64,000 bases of DNA from assembly GCF_022267315.1 (NCBI RefSeq), contig NZ_JAIKLE010000011.1, positions 1 to 64,000 of the forward strand, written 5' to 3'. Shown here piece after piece: positions 31,190 through 59,123 of the stretch (its first letter is position 1; each line of letters starts with the position of its first letter). The translations under genes were made by a program, and so were the position numbers. Below the pieces are notes generated by a model. The model did not search any database, was not told the origin of the DNA, and was given only the letters and a program-made list of their open reading frames with translations. This DNA is from Maribellus maritimus. GTDB taxonomy: Bacteria; Bacteroidota; Bacteroidia; Bacteroidales; Prolixibacteraceae.

Positions 31190-32587
31190 ATGATAGATCA
31201 ATCAACGATATGCGCTATTTCAAGCTCGCCCGGAACAGGAGCTATTGCGGTAATTCGCCTTTCAGGAAGTGAGGCGATAAGTATTACAGATAAAGTTTTT
31301 CAGAGTCCGAAAAAAGGCAAAAAACTGGTTGAGCAAAATCCAAATACGCTGCATTTTGGACAAATTGTATTTAAAGATGAAGTAGTTGACGAAGTTGTTG
31401 TTTGCCTGTTTCTTGAACCGCATTCTTTCACCGGCGAGAATATTGTTGAAATTTCCTGTCATGGCTCCACATTTATTCAACAAAAAATACTCGAAGTCTT
31501 GGTTGAAAATGGTGCCCGGCTGGCACTGCCCGGCGAATTTACACAACGTGCTTTTTTGAATGGCAAAATGGATTTATCGCAGGCCGAAGCGGTGGCCGAT
31601 GTAATTGCATCATCAAATGCTGCATCTCATAAACTGGCTTTAAACCAGATGCGGGGTGGTTTTTCCAGGGAAATCAATGATCTGCGGAGTCAGCTTTTGC
31701 ATTTTACGGCTATGGTTGAACTGGAACTGGATTTTAGTGAAGAGGATGTGGAATTTGCCGACCGAACAGAACTAAAAAATCTGACAGAAAGAATAGAAAA
31801 GTTACTGCGAAAACTTAAAAACTCATTTCAACTGGGAAATGCCATAAAAAACGGAATTCCCGTGGCCATTATAGGAGAAACAAACGTTGGTAAATCAACG
31901 TTACTGAATGCGCTTCTAAATGAAGATAAGGCTATCGTTTCTGATATTCACGGAACCACACGCGACGTAATTGAAGATGTGGTAAATATTCACGGCACAG
32001 CATTTCGTTTTTTTGACACGGCCGGAATCAGGGAAACAGAAGACCAGATTGAAAACCTTGGAATAGAACGCACCTACAGTAAACTGGAACAGGCTACAGC
32101 TGTTTTGCTGGTGGTGGATACAAACAACCCCTACCCGATAGTTTTTGGGCGAATCAACAAAATCAGAGAGCGGGTTACCAACGGACAAACGTTAATAATT
32201 GTCGCAAATAAAATTGATACCGGGCAACGGGAAACCATACAGGAATTGGAGCTGCTGGATTTAACAGACGATGAAAAAATGGTTTTTATTGCGGCAAAAA
32301 ATAAGGACAACCTCGATGAGTTGATTGATTTGATGATTCATTCCGTCAATATAGAAGCCGCCAGTCAGGAAGACATAATTGTAACCAACGCGCGCCACTA
32401 CGAAATACTAAAGAATGCGCACGAAGCAATTCTTCGCGTTCTTCAGGGACTGGAGAACGGAATTACCGGTGATTTTCTTGCTCAGGATATTCGGGAGTGT
32501 TTGCACTACTTAGGTGAAATTACCGGTGAGATATCTACCCACGAAGTACTTGGCCATATTTTTAAGAATTTTTGTATCGGAAAGTGA
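31190..32587 (+). CDS. mnmE: tRNA modification GTPase MnmE
   Basis: MnmE works with MnmG to modify wobble uridine in tRNA. The 465-residue protein has the N-terminal folate-binding domain (ICAISSSPGTGAIAVIRLSG), helical domain, G domain with GETNVGKSTLLNA, DIHGTTRD, DTAGIRE and NKID, and the C-terminal CIGK whose Cys is essential. The stop TGA at 32585-32587 lies in a direct repeat whose second copy, 26.5 kb away, reads CIGK-TAA. The stop codon used here therefore appears to come from the integrated element. Confidence 0.96.
   Translation: MIDQSTICAISSSPGTGAIAVIRLSGSEAISITDKVFQSPKKGKKLVEQNPNTLHFGQIVFKDEVVDEVVVCLFLEPHSFTGENIVEISCHGSTFIQQKILEVLVENGARLALPGEFTQRAFLNGKMDLSQAEAVADVIASSNAASHKLALNQMRGGFSREINDLRSQLLHFTAMVELELDFSEEDVEFADRTELKNLTERIEKLLRKLKNSFQLGNAIKNGIPVAIIGETNVGKSTLLNALLNEDKAIVSDIHGTTRDVIEDVVNIHGTAFRFFDTAGIRETEDQIENLGIERTYSKLEQATAVLLVVDTNNPYPIVFGRINKIRERVTNGQTLIIVANKIDTGQRETIQELELLDLTDDEKMVFIAAKNKDNLDELIDLMIHSVNIEAASQEDIIVTNARHYEILKNAHEAILRVLQGLENGITGDFLAQDIRECLHYLGEITGEISTHEVLGHIFKNFCIGK
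32570..32587 (+). repeat. attL: 18-bp direct repeat at the mnmE 3' end
   Basis: The sequence TTTTGTATCGGAAAGTGA encodes F-C-I-G-K-stop of mnmE. It matches the copy at 59106-59123 at 16 of 18 positions, including the 13-bp exact core TGTATCGGAAAGT (32573-32585). It lies about 140 bp before the integrase gene. Confidence 0.85.
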
Positions 32588-32694
32588 TAAAGGAAAATAA
32601 AAGAAACTAAATGACAATATATGAGATATTTACAATAAATATCACAAATCAAAATTTCCTATTATTTACTTTTTATATCTAATTTTTTGCTATA

Positions 32695-32727
32695 TTTTTA
32701 CAACTCAAAGCACTAAAGTTGTAAAAA
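32695..32727. promoter_or_regulatory. 10-bp inverted repeat just before the integrase start
   Basis: TTTTTACAAC (32695-32704) and GTTGTAAAAA (32718-32727) are perfect arms separated by 13 bp. The right arm ends 1 bp before the integrase ATG and the left arm overlaps the likely -7 region (TATTTTTA). This is a plausible operator or an Int/Xis binding site. Confidence 0.5.
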
Positions 32728-32728
32728 A

Positions 32729-33862
32729 ATGAAAATAAAGCTACGACAAAGAAATTTAAAGGATGGAAGAATAAGCTTATTCCTTGAATATTACAAAGGT
32801 TACACTAAAGACAAGGATGGAAAGATAAAACACAACCGGGAGTTTGAAAACCTGGAGATTTATCTAACCGATACCCAAAAAAACCAAAAACAAAAACAAC
32901 AGAATAAGGAAAAGCTAATTCTTGCAGATAAAATTTTAACTCAGAGAAAAGCAGAATACAACGCCGGAAAGTTTGGCTTTCAAAATACTTCAAAAATCAA
33001 TATAAACTTTATTGAGTATTTCAATAATATGACCGAAGAAAGGTTTGAAAGCACCGGAAATTATGACAATTGGAGAAGCACATACAACCATTTGGTTAAA
33101 TACTTTGGAGAAAACATCACATTTAAAAATTTTGATGGGGAGAAATTAAAATCATTCAAAAGTTATTTGGATTCCACTGCGACAACTCCGCAAGGTAAAC
33201 CGCTCTCAGCAAATACTAAACAATCCTACTTTTCAAAAGTTAAAGCGGCACTAAACCAAGCATTCAAAGAACGTATTATTTATGAAAATCCGGGAGATTT
33301 AGTTAAGGGGTTCCCAAAGACAGAAGTAGAGAGACCATATCTCACTCAAAGTGAAGTGCAAAAATTAGCTTTGGCAGAATGCAGGATTCCTGTTTTAAAA
33401 AAAGCCTTTCTATTTGCTTGTTTGACAGGACTCAGGTACTCAGATATAGAAAAACTTCTTTGGAAGGAAGTCCGAGAAAATGAGGATGAATTGAGGATAG
33501 TTTTCACACAAAAGAAAACCGATGGACTTGAATATTTATACATAAGTAAAAATGCCAGGGAGATTTTAGGTGAAAGAAAAGCACCTGATGATACGGTGTT
33601 TGATGGACTAAAATATTCTGCGCAAACTTCTAATATTTTAATGAAATGGGCTTATAAAGCTGGTGTACACAAAGAATTTACATTTCATTCGAGCCGACAC
33701 ACGAATGCAATTCTTATGCTTGAAAATGGAGCAGACATCTACACAGTTTCCAAAAGGCTTGGTCACAAAGAACTAAGAACAACCGAAATTTATGCTAAAA
33801 TTGTTGACAAAAAGCAAAAAGAAGCTGCCAATATTATACCCCAGATAAATATGTCGTTATGA
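32729..33862 (+). CDS. tyrosine recombinase (integrase) of the element
   Basis: The enzyme should catalyse integration into and excision from the mnmE 3' end. The 377-residue protein has an arm-binding N-terminal region, a SAM-like core-binding domain (about 95-190) and a catalytic domain with Arg236 (TGLRYSD), His320 and Arg323 (FHSSRHTN), His346 (RLGHKELR) and nucleophile Tyr355 (TTEIYAKI). All catalytic residues are present. The next gene overlaps its stop by 4 bp. Confidence 0.93.
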   Translation: MKIKLRQRNLKDGRISLFLEYYKGYTKDKDGKIKHNREFENLEIYLTDTQKNQKQKQQNKEKLILADKILTQRKAEYNAGKFGFQNTSKININFIEYFNNMTEERFESTGNYDNWRSTYNHLVKYFGENITFKNFDGEKLKSFKSYLDSTATTPQGKPLSANTKQSYFSKVKAALNQAFKERIIYENPGDLVKGFPKTEVERPYLTQSEVQKLALAECRIPVLKKAFLFACLTGLRYSDIEKLLWKEVRENEDELRIVFTQKKTDGLEYLYISKNAREILGERKAPDDTVFDGLKYSAQTSNILMKWAYKAGVHKEFTFHSSRHTNAILMLENGADIYTVSKRLGHKELRTTEIYAKIVDKKQKEAANIIPQINMSL

Positions 33863-34626
33863 GTAAGCCTGTTATAAACATCATCTTTATTGTAGCATTT
33901 ACATATCCAGCATTGAGGTTCATTTACAAATATTTAATTCTATTACTGTTTTCTGTGATTAAACGAGAAAAATTTGAATGGAATAAAGAAATTGATAAAC
34001 CCCGAATTCTATTTTACCTGGCTTTTTCTTTTTTAGCTGGGCTTTTGTGGTACATATTAGTTTTTCAAACTATACAACCTCTTGGCAAATTGCAATTTCT
34101 TTCAGATATTATACAAAGTATCTTTATTATAGGAGCGATACGCATAAGTCTGATTTTAAATGAAACATGGACAAAGCGATTTGATGAGATATCAATCATT
34201 AGAGAAATTAAAAGTTTAGTTTCAACTCAATTACGTTGTATTATTAGAGATGACAACAAAATAAAACAGTTGCATCATGCCCTAAACGATAACTATATAA
34301 ATTGTACTTTCCCGTCGTTCTATGCTTTTATAAAACAAAAGCATTTAGGAAAGCTTCCCAAAATAATTTGGATTGATTTTTTTAGGAATAAGGCCAACAG
34401 GCAAACGCTTATAGAACTGGTTACAAATTTATTTCCCGGCCTTTATAAAAAAGACGGTTCGTTAGATAGAATAACATTAGAAAACTTAATTCATGATTAT
34501 TTCTGCGAAGAAGATGGCTCTCCCATTATTCTGGGAAAAAAGCCTATCGATAAATTCATAGAAAAGACAACTGAACCAAAAGAGAAAATAAAGACACTTA
34601 TAAAAAGCTTTATATCAACAAAATAA
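33859..34626 (+). CDS. hypothetical membrane protein coupled to the integrase
   Basis: A 255-residue protein, not recognised. It has three hydrophobic segments (about 5-35, 50-72 and 83-100) and a soluble C-terminal part rich in Lys, Leu and Ile (about 105-255). The ATG overlaps the integrase TGA as ATGA, so translation is probably coupled. Its place in the element suggests a role in integration, transfer or host interaction, but nothing in the sequence names one. Confidence 0.7.
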   Translation: MSKPVINIIFIVAFTYPALRFIYKYLILLLFSVIKREKFEWNKEIDKPRILFYLAFSFLAGLLWYILVFQTIQPLGKLQFLSDIIQSIFIIGAIRISLILNETWTKRFDEISIIREIKSLVSTQLRCIIRDDNKIKQLHHALNDNYINCTFPSFYAFIKQKHLGKLPKIIWIDFFRNKANRQTLIELVTNLFPGLYKKDGSLDRITLENLIHDYFCEEDGSPIILGKKPIDKFIEKTTEPKEKIKTLIKSFISTK

Positions 34627-34725
34627 AATCCATCCCCCATCCTAATACCCATTACGTCCCCTTTCTCCCCGTTGCTATATATTTTGCTATTCTTTTCCTT
34701 TGATTCCAGATATCTAAAAAAGGAA

Positions 34726-34741
34726 AACGAAAGCTTTCGTT
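34726..34741. promoter_or_regulatory. 16-bp perfect palindrome before the HTH gene
   Basis: AACGAAAGCTTTCGTT ends 25 bp before the ATG of the excisionase-like gene. Perfect dyad symmetry of this length in a leader suits an operator, perhaps for that HTH protein itself. Confidence 0.45.
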
Positions 34742-34766
34742 CATTATTCACTAAAAAATAATAACA

Positions 34767-35054
34767 ATGAACGAATTTAAAATTGCTGAAAAGCTTGACC
34801 GTATCGAGCGACTAATTATTTCGAACAAAAAGGTACTGACATTTGATGAAGCGTGTGAATACACAGGCCTGTCACGTTCCTATTTATACAAACTAACTTC
34901 TTCCGGGAGAATACCATTCTCTAAACCAAATGGAAAAATTATTTTCTTTGAAAAAGAAAAATTAGACAACTGGCTTCTTCAGAATAGTCATAAATCCGAT
35001 GACGAAATAGAAGAGGAATCTCTTAGCTACGTCATAAAAAAGAAAAAAGCGTAA
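34767..35054 (+). CDS. excisionase-like helix-turn-helix protein
   Basis: A 95-residue protein with an HTH_17-type MerR/Xis DNA-binding domain: LTFDEACEYTGLSRSYLYKLTSSGRIPFSKPNGKIIFFEKEKLDNWL. Such proteins bend DNA to steer the integrase to excision, and some repress transcription. An acidic and then basic tail follows. It lies between the integrase pair and the replication genes. Confidence 0.82.
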   Translation: MNEFKIAEKLDRIERLIISNKKVLTFDEACEYTGLSRSYLYKLTSSGRIPFSKPNGKIIFFEKEKLDNWLLQNSHKSDDEIEEESLSYVIKKKKA

Positions 35055-35108
35055 AGCCCTACCCTTACGCTAAATATCAATTGGTTTTCCTAATTCAGAA
35101 AACCTGAT

Positions 35109-36311
35109 GTGAAAGATACAGGTTTTCGACAAACTAAAGAACAAATGGATTCAAAAGATAACTTATATGTCGTTGAAAATCCGAAAAAGAAAACAATCTT
35201 CGATTATACAGCAGAATATTTGTTTGAAAAATACGACATCCGGTACAATGAAATTTCGCATGATTATGAAGTTTCATTGAAGGAAGAAAATAACTGGCAT
35301 ATACTTAACGTCAACTCGCTGATAATAGAATTGGCTAAGGTTAGTATTGATGTAACGCCCAAGAAGCTGGAAATATTTATTAAGTCGGATTGGATTGAAA
35401 AGCATAACCCTATTCAAAATTATTTCAATTCGTTACCAGTTTGGAACGGCATAGATTATATCAAGAAATACTGTTCTTATGTACCAACCTTTGAAGACGA
35501 AGCATTTTTATATCATTTTCGTAAATGGTTGGTTCGTACGGTAAGGTGTGCACTCGAACCAGAATATTTTAACAAACAGACATTTATTATTAGCCATCGA
35601 GGACAAAGTTCCGGCAAATCTAACTGGTGCCGGTTTCTTTGCCCGCCAAGATTATCTGCTTACATGGCCGAGGACATAAGCAACGATAAAGATGCCAGAA
35701 TTCAGCTAAGCCGAAATTTCCTGCTGAATCTGGATGAATTGGCCGTACTGAGCAGGAAAGACATAAACGCACTGAAAGCCTTTTTCAGCAAAACCTTTAT
35801 CAATGAGCGCTTGCCTTATGACCGCAAAAACACAACGTTGCCCAGGATTTGCTCATTTATTAGCTCTACAAATATGACCACATTCCTGAACGATGAAACA
35901 GGCTCTGTGAGGTGGCTGTGTTTTGAACTCCGTGACACAATAAATTTTGCTTACTCGAAAGAAACCGACATTGATAACATTTGGGTGCAAGCTTATCATT
36001 TGGCTTACAAGGAACCGGGGTTCAATCCAGAATTAACGGTAAATGATGTGAACGAAAATGAAGAGCGCAACAAGAAATATACCCGGTTAACGACAGAACA
36101 GGAACTCATTGCCAAGTACTTCGAAAAATCGCAAGACATGGCCGACTTCGTTACTGCCTCCGATGTGTTGAGTGTATTAGGCCCCCTGAATTTCAGGTTA
36201 AACCACATTAATATCGGGAAAGCTCTGTCAGGGTTCAACTTTCAACGAATTAAGCACTCCCGAAAACAAGTTTGGGGATATTTGGCAAAATCAAATTTCA
36301 ATCCTGATTGA
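35109..36311 (+). CDS. VapE-type superfamily 3 helicase-like protein
   Basis: The 400-residue protein matches the VapE (virulence-associated E) family of helicase-like ATPases used in replication of phages and mobile islands. It has the family pattern NPIQNYFNSLPVWNG, a Walker A GQSSGKS (165-171), Walker B in FLLNLDELAVL, and CSFISSTNMTTFLNDETGSVRWLCFEL. The iteron-rich stretch and primase gene directly downstream point to a role in replicating the excised circle. Confidence 0.85.
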   Translation: MKDTGFRQTKEQMDSKDNLYVVENPKKKTIFDYTAEYLFEKYDIRYNEISHDYEVSLKEENNWHILNVNSLIIELAKVSIDVTPKKLEIFIKSDWIEKHNPIQNYFNSLPVWNGIDYIKKYCSYVPTFEDEAFLYHFRKWLVRTVRCALEPEYFNKQTFIISHRGQSSGKSNWCRFLCPPRLSAYMAEDISNDKDARIQLSRNFLLNLDELAVLSRKDINALKAFFSKTFINERLPYDRKNTTLPRICSFISSTNMTTFLNDETGSVRWLCFELRDTINFAYSKETDIDNIWVQAYHLAYKEPGFNPELTVNDVNENEERNKKYTRLTTEQELIAKYFEKSQDMADFVTASDVLSVLGPLNFRLNHINIGKALSGFNFQRIKHSRKQVWGYLAKSNFNPD

Positions 36312-36342
36312 AATGTTTTTGCTTAAAAATACGATTTAAAGC

Positions 36343-36520: not shown

Positions 36521-36553
36521 TAGGCAATTTTCAACATTTTAAAATATTTGCCG

Positions 36554-37426
36554 ATGAAAAAAGAAAAATTACAATGCGATACAGCGCGGGAGATTACGAT
36601 AGTCGATTTTCTGAAAGAAAACGCAGTTTTACCCCAACGGGAGAACCACAAAGAAGCCTGGTTCCTTAGCCCGCTTCGGGAAGAAAAAGAAGCATCTTTT
36701 AAGGTTTCAAAGCTGCTAAACCGCTGGTACGACCATGGGCTTGGCCAGGGCGGAAATATAATTGATCTGGTCATTGCAATGAACAACCATTGCAGCGTCC
36801 GGGAAGCGCTTTCTATCCTTGACAAAATCGCACTATCTTTTTCTTTTCAAAAGCAAGAAATTTTTGCAATTCCTGAAAAGCAAGACGAAATCAAAATTGA
36901 AAGTGTCCGTAATTTACAGCACCCGGCATTAATTACACGCCGAATCAATCCTTCAGTTGCAACCTGTTATGCAAAAGAAGTACATTATTCTTTCAGGGGG
37001 CGTACCTATTTTGCCATTGGATTAGAAAATATTTCAGGAGGCTGGGAACTCCGAAATCTGTATTTCAAAAATGCAGCTTCGCCTAAAGACTTTTCTTATT
37101 TCAATACCGGGAAACAAATGCTGAGTGTAACGGAAGGCATGTTTGACTTTTTCAGTTTGCTGATGTTTTATCCGCGCTTACCACACAAGTCGGATTTCCT
37201 GATTTTGAACTCGGTTTCTTTTACTAACCGGACTCAAAAAGTTGTCCTGCCATATTCAAAAATTGGTCTTTATCTCGACAATGACCCGGCAGGGAGAAAA
37301 GCTACAAAACAGTTAATGGCCGACTTATCGAACAGTGTCGACATGTCTGCCCTTTATGATGAAAAAAAAGATTTAAACCAGCTATTGACCGCTTCAATCC
37401 AACGATGCCGGAGACCTGTGCGGTAA
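36554..37426 (+). CDS. DNA primase-like protein (CHC2 zinc-finger-like and Toprim)
   Basis: The 290-residue protein shows a primase-like N-terminus (WFLSPLREEKEASFKVSKLLNRWYDHGLGQGGNIIDLVI) and a Toprim segment with the glutamate in VTEGMFDFFSLL and DxD-like YLDNDPAGRKATKQL. It would make primers or nick DNA for replication of the element. The frame extends to a TTG at 36548, but the ATG at 36554 is the natural start. It follows the iteron cluster. Confidence 0.82.
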   Translation: MKKEKLQCDTAREITIVDFLKENAVLPQRENHKEAWFLSPLREEKEASFKVSKLLNRWYDHGLGQGGNIIDLVIAMNNHCSVREALSILDKIALSFSFQKQEIFAIPEKQDEIKIESVRNLQHPALITRRINPSVATCYAKEVHYSFRGRTYFAIGLENISGGWELRNLYFKNAASPKDFSYFNTGKQMLSVTEGMFDFFSLLMFYPRLPHKSDFLILNSVSFTNRTQKVVLPYSKIGLYLDNDPAGRKATKQLMADLSNSVDMSALYDEKKDLNQLLTASIQRCRRPVR

Positions 37427-37433
37427 GCTATTT

Positions 37434-37544: not shown

Positions 37545-37853
37545 ATGAAAACAAAATATATTTCTTTCAGGATAAGTAATATTGAAAAGAAGGCAATAAC
37601 AATGGCTGCAAAAGAAACCGGGCTAAGCACCAGTGAATTTTCCAGGCGTGCTGCATTAAACATGAAAGTTACGCTGCGGTTTACTCCCGAAGAAATGGAA
37701 GTTTACAAAAACCTTCATATTTACCACCGGAATTTTAAAGTAATTGGCAACCTTGTTAAAAGCGACTATTTCAAAAAGAACGATATCATTCTCCTGGAAC
37801 TGGAAGAAGTGATAAAACTAATAAAGACCCACCTTAAAAAATTTGAACAATGA
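37545..37853 (+). CDS. MobC-like relaxosome accessory protein
   Basis: The 102-residue protein has a ribbon-helix-helix start (KTKYISFRISNIEKKAITMAAKETGLSTSEFSRRAAL) and the MobC-type tail (NFKVIGNLVKSDYF). MobC proteins bind oriT and help open it for the relaxase. Its stop region overlaps the relaxase start by 4 bp. Confidence 0.82.
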   Translation: MKTKYISFRISNIEKKAITMAAKETGLSTSEFSRRAALNMKVTLRFTPEEMEVYKNLHIYHRNFKVIGNLVKSDYFKKNDIILLELEEVIKLIKTHLKKFEQ

Positions 37854-38626
37854 TTGGAAAGGCCAAAAGCATATCACATGTTTCCAATGCTGTAAATTAC
37901 GCTAAAAACAAAAAAGGGGCAGTGGAAATCAGCCGGCACAATGTTGCAGGAGAATCAGGAAAAGAAATTGCCCAGGAATTCCGGGTATTCCAAAACCTGA
38001 ATGCACGATGTGAAAGAAATTCGTTTTCCATCGTTCTGAGCCCTGCCATCTCAGATGGGCAGAAACTCACAAACGGGGAATTTGCCCGGCTTGCCAATGA
38101 TTTTCTATCAAAGATGAACCTGAAAGAACATCAGTATGTCACCTTTTTACATTCAGATAGAAACCACCTTCACCTACATATTTTTGTTAACCGGATTGAT
38201 TATAACGGGAAAGCATATAAGGACAACTACATCAGCAAAAAAGCCCAACGAATTGCAGAAAGCATTGCCAAAGACTGGAAGTTTACTACAGCAAAAGAAG
38301 TTCAGCAGCAAAAAGAAGACCTATTATCCCGTCAGGTTATAGACGCACACGAAAAAGCCTTGCAACAAAAACCACGGAACATTTTTGAATATGCAGAACT
38401 GATGAAACCGTATGGTATAAACACACAATTAAAGCAAGCTTCTGACGGGAAAGTTATTGGCATAAAATTCCTGATTGGCGAAAATTCAATTAAAGCCAGT
38501 TCTGTACACCGTTCGTTTAGTGCAGCAAACCTGCAAAGATTAATCCTGCAAAACTTACAAGCAGACAATACCCATAAAAGAAACCAACAATACAATTCGA
38601 ATAAAAAACGAGGGTTTAGGTTATGA
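37850..38626 (+). CDS. relaxase/mobilization nuclease
   Basis: Relaxases nick oriT and lead the strand during conjugal transfer. The 258-residue protein has the N-terminal AVNYAKNKKGA with the likely catalytic Tyr17 and the metal-binding HSDRNHLHLHIFVNRID (His101, His106, His108, His110), the pattern of the PF03432 family. It is shorter than many relaxases and lacks an added helicase or primase domain, so it would rely on a co-resident conjugative machine. Confidence 0.88.
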   Translation: MIGKAKSISHVSNAVNYAKNKKGAVEISRHNVAGESGKEIAQEFRVFQNLNARCERNSFSIVLSPAISDGQKLTNGEFARLANDFLSKMNLKEHQYVTFLHSDRNHLHLHIFVNRIDYNGKAYKDNYISKKAQRIAESIAKDWKFTTAKEVQQQKEDLLSRQVIDAHEKALQQKPRNIFEYAELMKPYGINTQLKQASDGKVIGIKFLIGENSIKASSVHRSFSAANLQRLILQNLQADNTHKRNQQYNSNKKRGFRL

Positions 38627-38907
38627 GAAAAAATTTATCGCAACAGAAATTATTGGAAATATTAATAGTTGAAATTGAAATACTTCAACAAAATAGCAAG
38701 AACATTAAAGAAGTTGCTCCTGAAATTGCCCGGCAACTGTATGAACTAAAAACTGCCAAAATTAAGTTTGACCTAAATACTGACAAACTGGAAGAACTAC
38801 TTGAAGATAATCATCGAAAACTTAGGAAAAGTGTGGTTATGCCAAAGTGGTTTTTATGGTTGATTGCTGGTGTTTTATTGGCATCTGTTGCTAATTGGTT
38901 TGTTTAG
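38623..38907 (+). CDS. hypothetical small protein with a C-terminal membrane anchor
   Basis: A 94-residue protein, not recognised. It is predicted to be helical over about residues 5-70 and ends in a hydrophobic anchor (WFLWLIAGVLLASVANWF). It overlaps the relaxase stop by 4 bp, so it is translated with it and may assist mobilization at the membrane. After it come 180 bp without a gene. Confidence 0.65.
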   Translation: MRKNLSQQKLLEILIVEIEILQQNSKNIKEVAPEIARQLYELKTAKIKFDLNTDKLEELLEDNHRKLRKSVVMPKWFLWLIAGVLLASVANWFV

Positions 38908-41481: not shown

Positions 41482-41555
41482 ATACTTGTATTTTTAAATT
41501 TCTATCGAATTGCTTTAGCCTTCAATAAATGGCTGTATTTTGGCACTAATTCTCA

Positions 41556-41597
41556 GTTCCTCTATCCGCGAATCATCGGGATTCTGGCTTTACTCAT
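41556..41597 (-). repeat. intercistronic element after permease 2
   Basis: About 42 bp covering the stop of permease 2 and what follows closely resemble 51143-51186, after permease 6. Shared blocks are CCTCTATCC, ATCGGGATT and TTACTCATA. The hairpin is perfect only in the second copy. Confidence 0.45.
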
Positions 41598-43926: not shown

Positions 43927-43947
43927 AATATTATCTTATCATTTAAA

Positions 43948-46359: not shown

Positions 46360-46373
46360 GGTAGTTTATTTTT

Positions 46374-48725: not shown

Positions 48726-48747
48726 GATTTTATTTTTAAATTAGTTA

Positions 48748-51081: not shown

Positions 51082-51131
51082 CTCCAGATATTTATTTTAT
51101 AATTATACTTTAAACTTCAATACTCAAGTCC

Positions 51132-51153
51132 TACTCATAACGTAGTGCCTCTA
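51132..51153 (-). pseudogene. 22-bp stub of a permease 3' end
   Basis: Read on the minus strand this is a decayed copy of the last codons E-A-L-R-Y-E-stop found in every permease of the array. It lies 24 bp beyond the real stop of permease 6, as if a gene end had been duplicated or left after a deletion. Confidence 0.4.
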
Positions 51154-51186
51154 TCCCGAGCAATCGGGATTTCAGCCTTACTCATA
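51143..51186 (-). repeat. intercistronic hairpin element after permease 6
   Basis: On the minus strand ATCCCGA and TCGGGAT form a 7-bp stem (51152-51170) with a 4-base loop just after the permease 6 stop. A closely related stretch follows permease 2 at 41556-41597. It lacks a T run and may act in mRNA processing rather than termination. Confidence 0.45.
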
Positions 51187-53559
51187 GCGTAAGGCTTCAA
51201 CCGGGTTTCTCGTGGCAGCCCGCCAGCTTTGCCAGCTCACAGTTAACAAAGCAATTCCCAACGCCAGCAAACCGGCAAGTGCAAATATCCACCAACTCAA
51301 ACTCGTCTTGAAGGCAAAGTTTTCGAGCCACTTATTCATGGCGTAATATGCAATTGGCGTAGCAATAATAAATGCAATTATTACCCACTTTACAAAATCT
51401 ATATTGAGCAAAGCCAATACCTCTGAAATGCTGGCGCCGTTTACTTTACGGATACCTACCTCTTTGGTGCGGCGTTGTACTGAAAATGCAATATGAGAAA
51501 ACAACCCGAAGCATGAAAGCAAAACTGCAACAAGACAAAAGGCAGCGATAATTTTTGAAAGGCGTTCTTCTCCCCCGTACATGGCATCAAATTTATCGGC
51601 AACGGTAAACAACTCAAAGGGTTTTCCTCCTGATATTTCCCCCCATTCACTTTTGATAATCGGTAACGCTTTTGCCTCGTATCCCGGCTTCACGCGAAAG
51701 ACCATGTATTCAGGATAAGCATTTTTCTTATACCTGTAAATCATTGGTGGAATTGCCTGTGCCAGTGAATTTATATTTATATCTTTCAAAACACCAATAA
51801 CCGGCACTTTATAATCCTTTGAAAAAATGGCCAATTGTTTGTTTTCTATCGACTTCCATCCCAGTTTCTTTTTTAAAGTTTCATTAATTAAAATGCCCTC
51901 TGCGTCTGAGGCCAGTTCTTTAGAAAAATTGCGTCCTTCTACCACTGGTTGTTCCATCACACCCGCATAGTTCTCATCTATCCCAACAGATATGGTCGTA
52001 TAAGAGTTAAAATTTTCAGGGTTAAATACAGTGAACCCGTTTTTGTAAACTGTTCCGGGAATGGCTTCTGTAGCTGCAATACCTTTAATGCCATTTTGAA
52101 TTCCCCGCTTTTGTATTTCCTGCTCCAGTATCGGTGCTTTCTCTTTAATATTATTAGTTTCCCCGTTTAGCTGACTTATATTAACTGCAATCAGTCCATT
52201 TTTATTGAACCCCAAATCATGGTTTTTCATAAACGAAATTTGCTTAAAAACAAACAGCGAGGCTATAATAAGCATTGTAGCAATTGAAAGCTGCGCTACA
52301 ACCAATGATTTACGAAATACGTTTCCTGATGGATTGTATCCCTTTTTTCCTGACAGTAATTCTACAGGTCTTGGACGGGAAATTACCATAGCCGGATACA
52401 AACCGGACAATAACCCTGAAATGAGTATGATTCCCAACAGAATAAACCAGACGGATGGATTGGAAAATAAATCGTAACCTTTCATTAATGCCAGCTTTTG
52501 AAAGGGGGGAATGAGAAGCCTGGTTAATAATAATGCTATTCCCATTGCAACAACCGTTTTAAAAAAAGTTACGATAAGAAATTCTGTTGCCAGACTCCGA
52601 TGCGATGCTCCCAACACCTTGTATATTCCGGTTTCTTTTACATTCTTCTCTGTTTGACTAATAGACAGATTGACAAAATTGATACAGGCAATAACAATTA
52701 TAAATCCAGCTATAACACCCAATACCCAAATCAGAACAAATGAAACCGGAGTCGATATCGGATTTTCAATATCTGTACGAAAATGAGAGCCTTTTAAGGG
52801 AATAAGTTGAAAATCATAACGCCCGTCAATATATGGTGCTTTATGTCTTTCAAGAATGGTATTTATTTTTTGTTCCATATCTTCTTCTTGTCCCGTGTTT
52901 TTCATTTTGGCAAGAATGTGATAGCCTCCCCACCACCATAATTCTTGCCAGTTGGCTTGATTCATCGATTCCCAGGGAAGATACATTTCGAAATCAAAAT
53001 CGCTGTTTACCGCAGGATTTTGAATTATCCCCTCAACTGTAAAAATCTTCTCTCCTCCATAATTTTCAACTGTAAACATTTTGCCCATTGGATTTTCCTG
53101 CCCAAACAATTTTTGCGCACACGCCCGGGTAAGTACCGAACTTCCTGGTTCAGACAAAACTGTTTCTGAACCAACCAAAAGTTTTGTCCCTAACACATCA
53201 AAAATATTAGCATCGGCAACAGCAGCCCTGATACTAAACTTGGTCTCGCCACTGGTAACCGGATAGGAATAAGATGATAGCGCGGCAATCTCGCCAACCC
53301 CGGGATAATCATCACGGATTGCCTGTGCCAAAGGCAAAGGAGTGCCAAACGACAAACTTCCGTTGTTCCTGTCCTTTTCAACAACACGGTAAATTTTTTC
53401 TTTTTCAGGAATGTGATTATCAAAGGAAAGATGATATTGCAGATACAAAATTATCAACAAACTCATTGCCATACCAATAGATAAACCGGCAATATTTAGC
53501 AAGCCATATCCTCCTTCTTTTTTGAAAGAATGTTTTAAATGCTTAAAAATATTCATCAT
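51178..53559 (-). CDS. FtsX/MacB-type ABC permease 6, first gene of the array
   Basis: A 793-residue paralogue and the most upstream intact member. The first coupling helix reads VKETGIYKVLGASHRSLATEF and the second KEVGIRKVNGASISEV. The N-terminus LLNIAGLSIGMAMSLLIILYLQYHLSFDNH is a typical first helix. Two ATG codons in tandem (53559, 53556) can both serve as start. The promoter of the operon should lie upstream of here, but none was clearly seen; a permease stub occupies 53590-53733. Confidence 0.86.
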   Translation of the reverse strand: MMNIFKHLKHSFKKEGGYGLLNIAGLSIGMAMSLLIILYLQYHLSFDNHIPEKEKIYRVVEKDRNNGSLSFGTPLPLAQAIRDDYPGVGEIAALSSYSYPVTSGETKFSIRAAVADANIFDVLGTKLLVGSETVLSEPGSSVLTRACAQKLFGQENPMGKMFTVENYGGEKIFTVEGIIQNPAVNSDFDFEMYLPWESMNQANWQELWWWGGYHILAKMKNTGQEEDMEQKINTILERHKAPYIDGRYDFQLIPLKGSHFRTDIENPISTPVSFVLIWVLGVIAGFIIVIACINFVNLSISQTEKNVKETGIYKVLGASHRSLATEFLIVTFFKTVVAMGIALLLTRLLIPPFQKLALMKGYDLFSNPSVWFILLGIILISGLLSGLYPAMVISRPRPVELLSGKKGYNPSGNVFRKSLVVAQLSIATMLIIASLFVFKQISFMKNHDLGFNKNGLIAVNISQLNGETNNIKEKAPILEQEIQKRGIQNGIKGIAATEAIPGTVYKNGFTVFNPENFNSYTTISVGIDENYAGVMEQPVVEGRNFSKELASDAEGILINETLKKKLGWKSIENKQLAIFSKDYKVPVIGVLKDININSLAQAIPPMIYRYKKNAYPEYMVFRVKPGYEAKALPIIKSEWGEISGGKPFELFTVADKFDAMYGGEERLSKIIAAFCLVAVLLSCFGLFSHIAFSVQRRTKEVGIRKVNGASISEVLALLNIDFVKWVIIAFIIATPIAYYAMNKWLENFAFKTSLSWWIFALAGLLALGIALLTVSWQSWRAATRNPVEALRYE

Positions 53560-53589
53560 GGTTATAAAAGATTTTATTCCCTTAAAAAT

Positions 53590-53733
53590 TACTCATATCT
53601 GAGTGCTTCAACCGGGTTCCTTGTTGCAGCCCGCCAACTTTGCCAGCTAACGGTTAGTAATGCAATACCAAGTGACATCACTCCGGCAAGTAAAAATCCA
53701 CCAGCTTAAATTGGTTTTGCAAGCAAAATATTA
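53590..53733 (-). pseudogene. 3' remnant of a seventh permease gene
   Basis: On the minus strand the sequence encodes the shared ending (LSWWIF, then LAGVMSLGIALLTVSWQSW and RAATRNPVEALRYE) but with 2 bases lost after WWIF, which shifts the frame, and no upstream body. It is a truncated relative of the six intact permeases and lies immediately upstream of permease 6. Confidence 0.75.
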
Positions 53734-53863
53734 GATCCTTTTTCATAACTATCTATGTAACACCCAAAACATTAATATTTTATCAATAAAAATGCCTTTT
53801 TACTAAACTACTGAATAACAAAATCTTATAAAACCATTAATATGAACAAGTGTCAACTTATTT

Positions 53864-54110: not shown

Positions 54111-54401
54111 ATGACTAAAGCTGATATCATAAATAAGATAGCCTCCGAAACCGATATTGAGAAATCACAGATAAGTAAAACCATTGAGGCGTTTATGGAT
54201 ATCGCAAAAGATTCTCTGGTAAAAGGCGAAAATATCTATTTAAGAGGATTTGGAACATTTGAAATTAAGAAGCGCGCAGAAAAGAAAGCAAGGAACATTT
54301 CAAAAAATATTACGATGGTAATTCCGCCCCACAATATTCCTTTTTTTAACCCCAGTAGGCAATTCATCGAAAAAGTAAAAAGCAGTAACAAATTAAATTG
54401 A
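54111..54401 (+). CDS. HU/IHF family DNA-binding protein
   Basis: HU-type proteins bend and compact DNA as dimers. The 96-residue product has the N-terminal helices MTKADIINKIASETDIEKSQISKTIEAFMDIAKDSL, the arm motif YLRGFGTFEIKKRAEKKARNIS and the DNA-intercalating tip IPPHNIPFFNPSRQF. In a mobile element such a protein may help the integrase assemble or silence the cargo. A 443-bp gap with a permease scar follows. Confidence 0.9.
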   Translation: MTKADIINKIASETDIEKSQISKTIEAFMDIAKDSLVKGENIYLRGFGTFEIKKRAEKKARNISKNITMVIPPHNIPFFNPSRQFIEKVKSSNKLN

Positions 54402-54570: not shown

Positions 54571-54616
54571 ACAGCAAAGGTTCAACAGAATTTCTCGTAG
54601 CAGCCCACCAGCTTTT
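54571..54616 (-). pseudogene. 46-bp scar of another permease 3' end
   Basis: This stretch matches the ends of the permease genes over the codons for W-R-A-A-T-R-N-P-V-E-A (for example the block TTTCTCGTAGCAGCCC) with several substitutions. It sits 850 bp upstream of the main remnant, beyond the HU-like gene, and implies that the array once extended further. Confidence 0.5.
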
Positions 54617-54746
54617 ACGTAGCTTCAAAACTCTTTCATATTCCTTTTAAGAAGAATAACTAAAATATTGACGGAGTTTTTTTATTGTATCAAACAAAAA
54701 TGTTATAAAAGTATTATACGAAAATCAGGAATTGAAGGGCATTCAC

Positions 54747-54773
54747 CCCTTTCACAAAATATCAACATTTTCG
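54747..54773 (+). repeat. 27-bp imperfect direct repeat, left copy
   Basis: CCCTTTCACAAAATA, two changes, then ACATTTTCG matches 58667-58693 at about 25 of 27 positions. The two copies enclose the AlbA_2 genes and the DUF3843-like gene. Confidence 0.55.
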
Positions 54774-54845
54774 AAAGCCCGCCAATATCAATACTCAATC
54801 TTCTTTTGAAGATGTTGATTTAATAACGATATTTGTGACAGAATT

Positions 54846-55007
54846 ATGGTTAAATTAAAAGAAACACTTCTACGTCCGAAAGGGAGACGATTAGAGTTCA
54901 AGGCGACAATGCCGACCAATGCTGAATTGGCCAAAACTATTGTTAATTTCGTCAATATTCAGGAGATGCGATCGACATTTCTTGAAAGAATCTTTATTTT
55001 TAAGTAA
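54846..55007 (+). pseudogene. truncated AlbA_2 gene
   Basis: A 53-residue frame begins like AlbA_2 proteins (KETLLRPKGRRLEFKATMP, then NAELAKTIVNFVN) but leaves the family pattern where AGG...IGI should follow and soon stops. The rest of the gene is missing. An intact but different AlbA_2 gene starts 91 bp downstream. Confidence 0.6.
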
Positions 55008-55098
55008 AATTCTTAATTTTCTAAATCTTCTTAGGGATTAAGCTTAAAAGGCTTTACAGAATATAATTGAACCCAGAGTAGAAAAGAAAACAGAACTC

Positions 55099-56745
55099 AT
55101 GATTGAAGATAAAAACAAAGATTACAAAAGTCTTCGCAAAGTTACGGGCAGGTCAGCCGATTTAAAAAAGCTGGCCGAAACCTGTGTTTGTTTTGCCAAT
55201 GCCCAGGGAGGTGAAATTATCATCGGTATTGAAGATAAAGAGGGTTTTCCCCCAGCCGGACAAAAAATAGAACAAACAGTGGTAAACGATGTTGTAAAAA
55301 AACTCCGTGGCTTAACGGACGGAGTTGGCATTGTTAATCCCGAAATAATTACGCATGATAATGGAGGAGAATATTTTATTTTACGCATTCTACCATCAAC
55401 ACGTACCATTGCAACCACTTCATCCGGCAAGGTTTTTATCCGAATCTCCGATAACTGTTTCCCGGTTGGCAACGAAGAACTAACCGACCTGGCAGCAGAA
55501 AAAACAGCGTTCCAGTGGGAGCTTATCACTGCACGGAAAATTACGCTGAACCAAGCAGAGCAGCATAAAATAACTTCACTTGTTGCCAATTTAAAAGCCT
55601 CTGATAAAGTTTCCGATTTTATAAAAAGCAAAAGCGTAGAAGAGATACTTGAATACTATCAGTTGCTTTCAGACGAAGGTTATTTGACTAATCTTGGAGT
55701 CTTGTGGCTTGGAAAACCACAACAAAGGGCTGGTCTGAGCTATCCTGTTACCGTTCAATATATTGTTTATAATGAGAAAGAGGAGAAAATCAGGAAAAAG
55801 GAATGGCATTTTCATTTACACAATCCCAGGGAACTGTTACTGGAAATTGAAAAGGAAGCTGTTGAATTAACTTACAGTACCGAGTTACCCGATGGGCTTT
55901 ACCGTAAAACAATCCGCCAATATGCACCTGAAGTCATTAGGGAGTTATTGATTAATGCCATTGCACATAAGAAATATACCATTTCAGGTGATATTTTCAT
56001 TGAAGTTTTTCACGACAGGATGACTATAACCAGTCCGGGCGGATTCCCTCTTGGCATAACAAAAAATAATATACTACACGAAAGGCACAGAAGAAACCCG
56101 CATTTAATTCAACTGTTAAGCCATTTAAAATTAATGGAAGGCGAAGGTTCCGGCTATGATCTGGTTTTTGAAAAATTGAGCCGCGATGCCAAACCTCTCC
56201 CCGAAATAGAAAATGAATATACCAAAGTTGCTGTAACTGTTTATGCCGGTTCGGTTAATCCTGATGTGATTTCAATACTGGATTACATCGATAAACATTT
56301 CCGGCTAACACAAAAAGAATATATTACACTTGGGATAGTTGCTACCGAGAAAAAGATACTTTCTACTCAGCTTTCCGGGAAATTACAATTGAACCAGGAA
56401 GATAAAATGCGCTCCTGGATAGGCTCGTTAATTGATAATGGGATTATGGTTAGCCAGGGCATAAAAAAAGGAACAGAATACCTGTTAAACCCGGCATTGT
56501 TTGCCCAGGCAAAATTAGATATTACACCATCATTAAGGACTTTAGAGCCATATAAAATTGAAGCATTAATTATTGAAGATTTGAAATACAACGGAAAAAG
56601 CAAATTATCGGAAATTCAGGAACGGTTGAAAGAAATTCCGAAATCAGATATTCAAAAAGCTGTTTACAGGATGGTTGAAAGTGAAGATTTAATTACAGAA
56701 GGAGCTAAAAGAAACAGGACTTATAACTTGTTCAAAAAAAAATAA
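55099..56745 (+). CDS. AlbA_2 domain ATP-binding regulator-like protein
   Basis: The 548-residue protein has an N-terminal AlbA_2 (Schlafen-like) domain (LAETCVCFANAQGGEIIIGIED, about 25-135), a GHKL-type HATPase_c_4 region (ELLINAIAHKKYTISGDIFIEVFHDRMTITSPGGFP and GEGSGYDLVFE, about 270-390), and C-terminal winged helix segments (about 400-545). Such proteins are called putative transcriptional regulators or helicases and are common in mobile elements; some serve in defence. No confirmed function can be given. It is convergent with the DUF3843-like gene. Confidence 0.85.
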   Translation: MIEDKNKDYKSLRKVTGRSADLKKLAETCVCFANAQGGEIIIGIEDKEGFPPAGQKIEQTVVNDVVKKLRGLTDGVGIVNPEIITHDNGGEYFILRILPSTRTIATTSSGKVFIRISDNCFPVGNEELTDLAAEKTAFQWELITARKITLNQAEQHKITSLVANLKASDKVSDFIKSKSVEEILEYYQLLSDEGYLTNLGVLWLGKPQQRAGLSYPVTVQYIVYNEKEEKIRKKEWHFHLHNPRELLLEIEKEAVELTYSTELPDGLYRKTIRQYAPEVIRELLINAIAHKKYTISGDIFIEVFHDRMTITSPGGFPLGITKNNILHERHRRNPHLIQLLSHLKLMEGEGSGYDLVFEKLSRDAKPLPEIENEYTKVAVTVYAGSVNPDVISILDYIDKHFRLTQKEYITLGIVATEKKILSTQLSGKLQLNQEDKMRSWIGSLIDNGIMVSQGIKKGTEYLLNPALFAQAKLDITPSLRTLEPYKIEALIIEDLKYNGKSKLSEIQERLKEIPKSDIQKAVYRMVESEDLITEGAKRNRTYNLFKKK

Positions 56746-56955
56746 ATGAAAAATAAAACAAAAAATAAAACAACACTAACTACTGGCAGACAACACATTA
56801 CGTTATTTTTGCATCGTGTAAGCAAATAAATAAAACAGACTTAATCAGATTTAAATAATTTTCCCCTACCATAAATTGGCAATATTTCTGAAAGACAAGC
56901 CCCTGAGAGGATCAAAAACTTCAGGTATAAGCTGGTATTTTCCAAATTGTATAAA

Positions 56956-58575
56956 TTAGTTTTTGTCTCCAATTGCGGTAATTGATGGCTCTGAATAATA
57001 TCTTTCTTTTTTCCAGAAACGGAGCAAAAAATCAATATCATTTAGATAAAGTTTGCCCATTCCTTCTGTAAAAAAAGGGAGTTTGTCTCTGCAATTGTTA
57101 ATACAATACATAGCCAGTTCAGTAGAGATACTTTCATCCATAAATAACCTGAAAATATGGTCGTCACTATTCTCTTTATCAAAAAACGGGTTCCCAGGTA
57201 ACGGAAATGCAGAATTACATTCAAGTGCAATTTCAATTCCGCTTTTCTCGTTGAAAAATACCAATCCTGATTCTGCCACGTCTGAAAAATCAATTGTCTC
57301 CTGTTCTTTTTCAGGCTCAAAAAATCCATCTTTTCTCCCCCTTTCACGAGCTTCTTCAATCTCCTTTTCAGTCAGGTTTAGCGAATCGTTAAAATAGTTA
57401 TAATATTTTTGATTAAAATCCATTAACTTGTCTGAAACCATGAAAGCAATGGGCGAGCCATTATTAAAATCCAGAAAAGTTGCAAACTGTTTTTTCAAGG
57501 TATCAACTATTTTTTCATTTTTATGGTCAAGGAAATTAACTGCCTGCCTGCTTTCAACTGAGTTTTTTTCTTTAAGGACTAAATCTGCATTAAAATCATT
57601 TTGAAAATATACGCCGGAAAACCACCACTCTTTTTCCCACTGTACAATTCCCATAAAAACAATTGTATCGATTTCTGTTAAATTATGGGAATGGTCGAAA
57701 GATTTCTTTGTTAGCCTGAATGTTTTCCCCGAAGCAATATGTTCAAGAAATATATCCTTTTCATCCTGCCCTTTATAAAGAAAAAAACCACGTATTCTTT
57801 TGGAGATATTTAAATATGCATCATGAAAAGGGTGTTCTTTACCAATAATACCAGCCACCCATTCCTTCCCTTTTAAACCCAACAGACGAGTACAACTGTT
57901 TTGTAACGTAGTCTCCCTGTTTTCATTCAAAAACATCATAAGGTTTTCATCCATCCCATTTTCTTCAATTATTCCGGCTTCACTTTCTTCAAGCCGGAAT
58001 AAAGTGTCGGGGTAGAACAGGTAAGTTTTAAAAAGTAATGTATCAATGAGATTCCGGGAATCGTAATAATCAGCATCTTCACTAATTGTGTAAATTCTTT
58101 GTAGTACATTATTCTCCGGCGCATACTCCCAGGCTTCATCAAAAACAGTAAAAACATTTTTGGTGCTTTGTTCAATAAATTCGTTATAAGGCGAAATAAA
58201 TTTATCGTTTTGTATGGTATTCATAAAATACCAAATAAGAAAGCCTAAGTCTTGCGGGTTAATTTCGTCGTCGAAATACTCTTCGCAATCGTAAAATGGC
58301 AATGGTTTATTGTACAATTGTTTGTGTTGCTTCACAAAAGTACTGTATATATTTGTGTCGGAAATCAGGTCTTCAAACCAGGCGGTTAAAAAACAGGCAA
58401 GAAGGTTAATGTCTTCTTTTTCTATGTAGCTATAAAAAACTACCGATGCTTTGTCTGAAAGTAAAGCTTGTTTAACCTTATTACAAAGTTTAAGATAATA
58501 GCTATCAGTTAGTGTTTGATTTTCGTATGGTTTTAAAGTTAACCAGTCATCAATATATATTTTGTCTTTTTCCAT
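56956..58575 (-). CDS. DUF3843-like hypothetical protein
   Basis: The 539-residue protein begins KDKIYIDDWLTLKPYENQTLTDSYYLKLCNKVKQAL, which I recall as the DUF3843 family of Bacteroidota, mainly from memory of its start. It is soluble, acidic and Phe/Tyr/Trp-rich, and shows no known catalytic motif. It faces the AlbA_2 gene tail to tail with a 210-bp gap. A role with that gene is possible but unproven. Confidence 0.6.
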   Translation of the reverse strand: MEKDKIYIDDWLTLKPYENQTLTDSYYLKLCNKVKQALLSDKASVVFYSYIEKEDINLLACFLTAWFEDLISDTNIYSTFVKQHKQLYNKPLPFYDCEEYFDDEINPQDLGFLIWYFMNTIQNDKFISPYNEFIEQSTKNVFTVFDEAWEYAPENNVLQRIYTISEDADYYDSRNLIDTLLFKTYLFYPDTLFRLEESEAGIIEENGMDENLMMFLNENRETTLQNSCTRLLGLKGKEWVAGIIGKEHPFHDAYLNISKRIRGFFLYKGQDEKDIFLEHIASGKTFRLTKKSFDHSHNLTEIDTIVFMGIVQWEKEWWFSGVYFQNDFNADLVLKEKNSVESRQAVNFLDHKNEKIVDTLKKQFATFLDFNNGSPIAFMVSDKLMDFNQKYYNYFNDSLNLTEKEIEEARERGRKDGFFEPEKEQETIDFSDVAESGLVFFNEKSGIEIALECNSAFPLPGNPFFDKENSDDHIFRLFMDESISTELAMYCINNCRDKLPFFTEGMGKLYLNDIDFLLRFWKKERYYSEPSITAIGDKN

Positions 58576-58666
58576 ATTAAAGAATATTACTTCAACCCTC
58601 TAAAGCAATGTTTTCGTTACCTCCACGAATTATAAGTCAAATATTATTATGGGCTAAATTTACAAT

Positions 58667-58693
58667 CCCTTTCACAAAATACCTACATTTTCG
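58667..58693 (+). repeat. 27-bp imperfect direct repeat, right copy
   Basis: This is the second copy of the repeat at 54747-54773. It lies in the 530-bp gap (58576-59105) between the DUF3843-like gene and attR, a stretch in which no gene was recognised. Confidence 0.55.
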
Positions 58694-59105
58694 GGAAACA
58701 AGAAGCCCTCCAGGTTTTCAAAAGCTTCCGACATAAAGCCATTCATTCCAAAACCGGAAGAGTTAATTTCTTCCATCGCACTTTCCTAATTTCAAAAGGA
58801 CTTAACCTGCGTTAACTCCGGTTAAAACTTTTTGAAATCCTTCATTAACACTTCTGCTTTTTCCATTCATTTTTTATTTCTTTTCCTTTTGAAAATTTTC
58901 CGAAAATGTTTAACGCGGTGTTTACGGGTTTGAAATAGAGTCTTATGCTTAATATATCTGCAAGATAGTGTATCTTTATGGAGAAATAACAGGCGAAATT
59001 AACACCGATATAAAAAACTGATATTTTCACATCATATTTACATCTCGCGCAATTCGAGTACCATATAAGAATCTAATAATGTGCCTATTACACAAAAACT
59101 ACACA

Positions 59106-59123
59106 TTCTGTATCGGAAAGTAA
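59106..59123 (+). repeat. attR: 18-bp direct repeat, displaced mnmE 3' end
   Basis: TTCTGTATCGGAAAGTAA reads as F-C-I-G-K-stop, the end of mnmE, although no mnmE body precedes it. It matches attL at 16 of 18 positions. The TAA lies 6 bp from the end of lplA and is probably the original mnmE stop. Confidence 0.85.

What the first reader, a model, noticed from the sequence alone, without database searches (positions are those of the whole stretch)
32570..59123. A 26.5-kb mobilizable element inserted at the CIGK codons of mnmE
The sequence TTYTGTATCGGAAAGTRA occurs at the mnmE stop and again 26,536 bp away, with a 13-bp exact core. The right copy has no mnmE body before it and sits 6 bp from the convergent lplA. 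An integrase begins about 140 bp inside the left end, and mobilization genes follow. The target is the codons for the essential MnmE CIGK motif. SGI1 of Proteobacteria uses the same gene end, so two apparently unrelated integrases would share one highly conserved target. The repeat and genes are seen; the claim of a single insertion is inference.
Basis: partly seen in the sequence, partly recalled or inferred. Interest (0 to 1): 0.85.

Follow-up and report, generated by a model that had tools for sequence, protein, structure and literature searches.

The report
Mobile island at the mnmE end
A 26.5-kb mobile DNA island sits in the last codons of a conserved tRNA-modification gene without breaking it, and the enzyme that most likely put it there belongs to a group found widely in the Bacteroidota, in islands and in phages, that lands at this same gene end.

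Summary
The last 18 bp of mnmE recur 26,536 bp away (32570-32587, 59106-59123) and the pattern occurs nowhere else in the 7.3-Mb assembly. Between them lie a tyrosine integrase, helicase/primase genes, a NikA-like protein, a relaxase and cargo (six MacB/FtsX permeases, HU, an AlbA/Schlafen ATPase, DUF3843). In the genus, 11 of 20 usable genomes carry a related integrase there, and 9 of these 11 show the second repeat on the same contig, 8-37 kb away, with differing cargo. Right flanks of two occupied relatives align to the DNA directly after mnmE in integrase-less relatives. Of the best 80 loci of a Bacteroidota-wide hit list, 75 have the integrase directly after mnmE; 16 of 33 informative viral contigs carry the site beside the integrase without mnmE, which I read as attP. 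So this is most likely an NBU-like integrative mobilizable element whose integrase belongs to a phylum-wide mnmE-targeting group. That SGI1 uses an unrelated integrase is doubtful: a published tree puts both in the IntCTnDOT subgroup. I could not obtain SGI1 Int to test descent, and found no empty site for this very genome.

The parts
31160..32587 (+). mnmE (tRNA modification GTPase), left flank; its last 18 bp are attL; reading frame intact
   Evidence: Pfam MnmE_helical, TrmE_N; up to 84% identical to genus orthologues
32570..32587 (+). attL, left copy of the 18-bp att core
32729..33862 (+). tyrosine integrase (Arm-DNA-bind_5, SAM_5, catalytic domain; catalytic R, K, HxxR, H and Y columns present; which columns are catalytic is recalled)
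   Evidence: alignment A1
33859..34626 (+). ORF of 255 aa, no family match in Pfam or PADLOC
34767..35054 (+). HTH_17 protein, possible recombination directionality factor (inferred)
   Evidence: 41-52% identical to ORFs in G006, G007, G008, G015
35109..36311 (+). VapE-like protein
36548..37426 (+). CHC2 zinc finger/Toprim primase-like protein
37545..37853 (+). NikA-like mobilization protein
37850..38626 (+). relaxase (MobA/VirD2 nuclease domain)
38623..38907 (+). ORF of 94 aa, no Pfam match
39088..53559 (-). six tandem MacB/FtsX permeases (39088-41481, 41590-43926, 43948-46359, 46374-48725, 48748-51081, 51178-53559), cargo
53568..53743 (-). 3' remnant of a seventh permease copy
   Evidence: repeat families D2 and D3, seven copies each
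54111..54401 (+). HU-family DNA-binding protein
55099..56745 (+). AlbA_2/Schlafen domain plus RecG-C-type ATPase domain protein
56956..58575 (-). DUF3843 protein
   Evidence: E<=1e-30 in 13 of 149 order genomes, own included
59106..59123 (+). attR, right copy of the 18-bp att core
59130..60116 (-). lplA-type lipoate ligase, right flank
   Evidence: a 79-80% identical orthologue stands 44 bp from attR of an unlike element in G017

Best explanation
The stretch 32570-59123 is an integrative mobilizable element of the NBU-like Bacteroidota type. Its integrase recombined an 18-bp attP on the circular element with the last 18 bp of mnmE (codons FCIGK and stop), so that the left copy restores mnmE exactly and the right copy remains as a non-coding relic in front of lplA. 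The integrase belongs to a group, shared by islands and temperate phages of Bacteroidota, that uses the mnmE 3' end as landing site and tolerates changes at codon wobble positions. Excision would be by the same integrase with a directionality factor (an HTH_17 protein is the candidate). Transfer would use the element's own relaxase and a helper's mating pore, since no type IV secretion family was found. Shown: repeats, gene content, occupied and vacant sites in relatives, the site beside the integrase in viral contigs. Inferred: excision, circle, helper, transfer, and that all the cargo came in with this one insertion.
For: Repeats and genes. Genus: integrase next to mnmE in 11 of 20 genomes with at least 2.8 kb after mnmE; a second copy in the same orientation on the same contig in 9 of these 11 (8.1-37.3 kb away), on another contig in G015; G001's contig ends too soon. 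Vacancy: the G002 right flank from base 6 aligns to G010 from base 6 after mnmE at 86.8% over 3,500 bp; G008 aligns to G024 from base 23/24 at 85.3% over 1,583 bp; left ends (3.5 kb) of 10 elements match none of the 9 integrase-less genomes. lplA stands beside attR also in G017, whose element is unlike (integrase 40%). Order: 20 of 30 integrase loci read adjoin mnmE, window included. Phylum: 75 of the 80 best loci. Viral contigs: of 33 with at least 1.5 kb before the integrase, 16 bear the site without mnmE, 6 with mnmE. Movement: integrase 93% identical between G008 and a Bacteroidales bin whose mnmE is 51% identical.
Against: No empty site was found for the window genome; its nearest mnmE is 84% identical, and in integrase-less G004 9.5 kb of other genes lie between mnmE and lplA. 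Of 10 right flanks compared, only G002 and G008 align at once; in G005, G007 and G017 the matching DNA is offset by 0.2-3.3 kb, in G015 and G016 it is a short piece, and G000, G006 and G012 have no DNA match. The window integrase is a long branch. 10 of 30 order loci, 2 of 77 phylum loci with enough sequence and 9 of 33 such viral contigs show neither mnmE nor its end. No HTH gene lies between mnmE and integrase in the window, unlike the three relatives tested. No oriT, circle or transfer was shown.
Confidence: 0.9

Rival explanations
1. Composite island, a variant of the main reading: a small integrase-primase-relaxase element (about 32.6-38.9 kb) inserted at mnmE, and the permeases, HU, AlbA ATPase and DUF3843 came later, or from tandem insertions whose inner att site was lost.
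For: A smaller element of the group with int, VapE-like and Toprim genes exists (G079, second copy 9.4 kb away). G002, G005 and G012 share the first 6.6-6.9 kb of element (84-90% DNA identity) and then carry mostly different cargo. The host genome has 37 permease matches.
Against: No att copy with 2 or fewer mismatches inside the element.
Confidence: 0.35
2. The integrase is a domesticated chromosomal gene that merely neighbours mnmE, and the second repeat is chance.
For: The neighbourhood mnmE-integrase is seen across the phylum.
Against: Patchy presence in the genus (11 of 20), integrase 93% identical where mnmE is 51%, 21 attL/attR pairs in direct orientation, the site without mnmE in viral contigs, vacant sites.
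Confidence: 0.02
3. The sharing of the mnmE site by SGI1 and this group is convergence of unrelated integrases.
For: Hosts differ, and the review table lists no relaxase for SGI1 (PMC5704250, passages). SGI1-type genes other than the integrase were not found among the window's Pfam matches.
Against: SGI1 integrases are placed in the IntCTnDOT subgroup with NBU1 and CTnDOT (PMC8138268). SGI1 uses the same last 18 bp, and its attP differs from attB at positions 9 and 12 (PMC2297512, passages), which are wobble positions, as are the differences here.
Confidence: 0.3

Closest known systems
NBU1/NBU2-type Bacteroides integrative mobilizable elements
   Same: Tyrosine integrase of the same published subgroup, primase-type gene (recalled for NBU1), relaxase, no mating-pore genes; insertion at a gene 3' end
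   Different: NBU1 and NBU2 sit at tRNA-Leu and tRNA-Ser 3' ends (table passages in PMC5704250); this one sits in a protein gene and carries long cargo. No alignment with NBU1 proteins was made
SGI1 and related islands (SGI1, PGI1, PGI2, AGI1; MGIVchHai6) of Gammaproteobacteria
   Same: Target is the 3' end, for SGI1 the last 18 bp, of mnmE/trmE; mobilizable island; SGI1 integrase in the same published subgroup
   Different: Other hosts and another backbone with traN, traG, mpsA/mpsB and sgaCD, mobilized by IncA/C plasmids (PMC5704250 and PMC9035990 passages); integrases not compared directly here
dusA integrase family (islands and prophages in dusA)
   Same: One integrase family, islands and prophages, one conserved tRNA-modification gene as target
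   Different: Targets the 5' end of dusA (PMC4482086, start of abstract in search listing)

Membership tests
Integrative mobilizable element (IME) | Integrase and att sites flanking the element | tested here: met
Integrative mobilizable element (IME) | Own mobilization gene(s) but no mating pore | tested here: met
   Relaxase and NikA-like protein found; none of the 17 coding genes listed under parts matches a type IV secretion family in Pfam
Integrative mobilizable element (IME) | Excision and helper-dependent transfer | not testable with these tools
   needs bench work
IntCTnDOT subgroup of tyrosine recombinases | Arm-binding, core-binding and catalytic domains of the Bacteroidetes type | tested here: met
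   PF17293, PF13102 and PF00589 over cut-off. That PF17293 marks this subgroup is inferred; among 14 control genomes it rings in 1, a Bacteroides
NBU family | Insertion at a tRNA gene | tested here: not met
   target is mnmE; the only tRNA gene in the window is at 219-293
NBU family | Sequence kinship of integrase, primase and relaxase with NBU1 | not tested
   only gene kinds and order were seen
SGI1-related elements | Insertion at last 18 bp of mnmE/trmE | tested here: met
   SGI1 site from PMC2297512 passages
SGI1-related elements | Conserved backbone (traN, traG, mpsA/mpsB, sgaCD) | tested here: not met
   no such family among Pfam matches of the 17 genes; feature list from PMC9035990 passages
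SGI1-related elements | Integrase of the SGI1 clusters | not tested
   no SGI1-type integrase could be obtained
Temperate phage | Virion structural genes | tested here: not met
   none among Pfam matches of the 17 genes; relatives of the integrase do lie on phage-like contigs

The most novel reading that the evidence does not exclude
One integrase lineage became a specialist for the CIGK codons of mnmE in Bacteroidota, spread among islands and temperate phages of the whole phylum, and later seeded the SGI1 family of Gammaproteobacteria, so that the landing site of a major island family is inherited from Bacteroidota rather than found anew.
Probability: 0.3. Interest if true: 0.7.

Novelty: new variant of a known kind. 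Interest (0 to 1): 0.5.

Why it matters
It gives Bacteroidota a predictable hotspot: the DNA after mnmE often holds an island. Of the six islands whose selected proteins were scanned with PADLOC, four (G017, G008, G006, G012) gave defence-family matches such as type I restriction, DISARM-type and reverse-transcriptase proteins; G005 gave none and the window only weak ones. Islands and temperate phages seem to contest the same 18 bp, so occupancy could affect which phage can settle. The integrase and its site, made of nearly invariant codons, may serve as an insertion tool in many Bacteroidota. And it makes the origin of SGI1's site specificity a testable question.

Tried and rejected
Kinship with SGI1 Int therefore rests on the literature. 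A viral-contig scan with the window integrase alone found no relative; with the 21-row alignment A1 it did.

Second copies that I dropped: 9 loci had a downstream match with at most 2 mismatches and I used 6 (dropped L160, L177 and L208, whose mismatches lie outside wobble positions). In one search, matches with 2 mismatches in L068, L078 (minus strand), L090 (same contig as L208) and L103 (minus strand), and all with 3 mismatches, were dropped.

Slip: I listed G001 among the empty genomes; it carries the integrase, and every control match was to it. The second G001 site (contig C618) is preceded by mnmE-like coding DNA and was not used as attR.

Papers: PMC7192596 not held. Searches for this group in print: (no paper), 28, 30, 71 and 72 with mnmE, trmE, thdF or tRNA modification GTPase among the terms, 29 and 32 more general; listings were capped at 15 to 30 and I read only some papers, so absence from print is not shown. 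The TIGER/Islander database holds about 1.75 million islands (PMC12424338, whole text) and may list such cases unremarked.
Full report
WHAT IS THERE. The last 18 bp of mnmE (31160-32587) recur 26,536 bp downstream at 59106-59123 in the same orientation. The broader pattern TTYTGYATHGGVAARTRA has just these two matches in the 7.33-Mb assembly. The right copy has no mnmE body before it and stops 6 bp short of the convergent lplA gene. Between the copies lie a 377-aa tyrosine integrase (arm-binding, core-binding and catalytic domains), a 255-aa ORF, an HTH_17 protein, a VapE-like protein, a CHC2/Toprim protein, a NikA-like protein, a relaxase, a 94-aa ORF, six MacB/FtsX permeases on the other strand, an HU protein, an AlbA/Schlafen ATPase and a DUF3843 protein. 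The residues that I know as catalytic are present in the alignment of 21 integrases. GC content shows no sharp border.

IS IT AN INSERTION? Of 25 genus genomes (window included), 20 have at least 2.8 kb after mnmE in what I fetched; 11 carry a related integrase there (the other ten 35-45% identical to the window's), 9 do not. In 9 of the 11 a second copy lies on the same contig in the same orientation, 8.1 kb (G016) to 37.3 kb (G006) away; in G015 it is on another contig, and G001's contig ends too soon. Vacancy is direct for two relatives: after the right copy of G002 the DNA aligns to integrase-less G010 from base 6 after mnmE at 86.8% over 3,500 bp, and G008 aligns to G024 and G010 from bases 23-31 at 85% over about 1,580 bp. 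The left ends (3.5 kb) of ten elements match none of the 9 integrase-less genomes (6 kb after mnmE); all control matches were to G001, which I had wrongly listed as empty. The test is not clean everywhere: in G005 the matching flank begins 1.67 kb after the right copy, in G007 and G017 it is offset by up to 3.3 kb, G015 and G016 match only short pieces, and G000, G006 and G012 have no DNA match.

For the window genome itself there is no empty partner. But an lplA orthologue (79-80%) stands 44 bp from the right copy in G017, although that element is unlike (integrase 40% identical; restriction and reverse-transcriptase cargo). So mnmE-lplA was probably a junction that was hit more than once. 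G004, without integrase, has 9.5 kb of other genes in the gap (a helicase-domain ORF of 204 aa, a RyR-domain protein, a TIR/AAA protein), perhaps a decayed island.

HOW SITE-SPECIFIC IS THE INTEGRASE? Of 198 genomes of the order, 30 have a match at E<=1e-40 (33 matches, 30 given as loci). 20 of these 30 loci, the window's included, adjoin mnmE; in the other 10 neither mnmE nor its end motif lies in the 4-20 kb examined. 75 have the integrase after mnmE on the same strand, 116 to 845 bp from it; of the other 5, three have under 700 bp before the integrase, leaving L215 and L226 as real exceptions. By record title all 80 are Bacteroidota, among them Prolixibacteraceae, Flavobacteriaceae, Cyclobacteriaceae, Chitinophagaceae, Sphingobacteriaceae, Saprospiraceae, Hymenobacteraceae and Rikenellaceae. 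The kept set is the nearest part of the relatives and A1 was built from mnmE-adjoining integrases, so the fraction for the whole family is unknown. In a tree of 47 integrases the label 'at mnmE' needs 6 changes against a shuffled mean of 14.2 (0 of 500 as low); the window row is a long branch.

IT MOVES. The integrase of G008 is 93% identical to that of a Bacteroidales bin (L208) whose mnmE is only 51% identical. G002, G005 and G012 share an alignment of 8.1-8.3 kb that begins in mnmE (84-90% identity, so about 6.6-6.9 kb of element); beyond it only a piece of 340-440 bp and, for G002 and G005, 220 bp at the right end and the flank are alike. In IMG/VR, A1 found 342 relatives and 80 were kept. 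33 have at least 1.5 kb before the integrase: 16 bear the 18-bp site without mnmE, which I read as attP, 6 bear it with mnmE, 2 have mnmE but no strict motif, and 9 have neither; over all 80, 43 have the motif and 22 mnmE. Of ten proteins from four such contigs, several match phage tail-fibre, RecE, RecT, SbcC-like and reverse-transcriptase families; L248 gave no named function. So temperate phages most likely share the landing site. In a 200-row FastTree tree the label 'IMG/VR origin' needs 4 changes (long branches noted).

THE CORE. Over 21 attL/attR pairs (10 genus, 5 order, 6 named) the copies agree over 18 bp and fall to background outside, except for an A two positions before the core's neighbour (position -2: 18 of 21 alike). 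All 231 cells at eleven positions fixed by the amino acids and the first stop base agree; differences lie at wobble positions (22 of 105) and in the last two stop-codon bases (7 of 42). The pairs were partly chosen for this (see Tried and rejected). In the 12 pairs found by plain mismatch count, all 15 differences in the first 15 bases are at wobble positions, seven other candidates having been dropped. SGI1's attP likewise differs from its attB at positions 9 and 12 (PMC2297512 passages), wobble positions in this register. The likely meaning: the integrase reads the positions fixed by the protein sequence, and the element carries a core from an earlier host.

CARGO. Selected proteins only were scanned. 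Defence-family matches: type I restriction (G017, G008), a reverse transcriptase listed as DRT (G017), DISARM-type and PDC-S05 proteins (G006), a DdmD-like protein (G012); none in four G005 proteins; weak Argonaute-associated matches for the window's AlbA ATPase. Other cargo: a rhamnosidase (G005), a purine nucleoside permease and a short-chain dehydrogenase (G002). The window's permeases resemble arrays elsewhere: the host has 37 matches at E<=1e-100 to the one permease queried, and the best other match listed is 41% identical, in G008. A 3' remnant of a seventh copy lies at 53568-53743. No ABC-type ATPase was found among the element's 17 genes; what the permeases do is unknown.

LIKELY MECHANISM. 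Integrase-mediated recombination between circular attP and the end of mnmE, which is rebuilt exactly. The relaxase and NikA-like protein would act at an oriT (not located) and a conjugative element would supply the pore. In the three relatives tested an HTH_17 gene lies between mnmE and integrase (122 aa in G006; 248 and 307 aa with three HTH_17 matches in G017 and G002); the window has one after the integrase. I take it as the directionality factor. Excision, circle and transfer are inferred.

KNOWN OR NEW? Islands at the 3' end of mnmE/trmE are well known in Gammaproteobacteria (SGI1, MGIVchHai6: PMC5704250 table passages; PMC9035990 passages). The Bacteroidetes elements in the table part that I saw sit at tRNA genes, at preferred sites or in AT-rich DNA; a Riemerella island and Porphyromonas prophages are described at tRNA genes (PMC9745183 and PMC10367356 passages). 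I saw no description of mnmE as a Bacteroidota hotspot. A published classification puts SGI1's integrase with NBU1's and CTnDOT's (PMC8138268), so 'unrelated integrases' is doubtful and common descent is open.

Noticed in passing
Purpose unknown.
   Followed up: partly
L073:1641-2384, L082:1650-2570: A protein with three HTH_17 matches lies between mnmE and integrase in G017 and G002, an unusual directionality-factor candidate.
   Followed up: no
L247, L269, L280, L287, L300 near the mnmE-end site: Partial second copies of the core, or TTGGAAAGTAAGGC-like words, beside the site in viral contigs, perhaps arm sites.
   Followed up: no
L247:3980-5320: Reverse-transcriptase match upstream of the integrase on a phage-like contig, possibly part of a diversity-generating element.
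   Followed up: no
L103, about 18477 of the mnmE-oriented stretch, minus strand: Inverted near-copy of the mnmE end 17 kb after mnmE in G157, with 2 mismatches in the first 15 bases.
   Followed up: no
L069:1438-10851 (G004): Helicase-domain ORF, RyR-domain protein and a 1523-aa TIR/AAA protein between mnmE and lplA without an integrase, perhaps a decayed defence island.
   Followed up: partly
21 attL/attR pairs, two bases upstream of the base before the core: An A at position -2 is shared by attL and attR in 18 of 21 pairs although outside the 18-bp core, perhaps an integrase contact.
   Followed up: no
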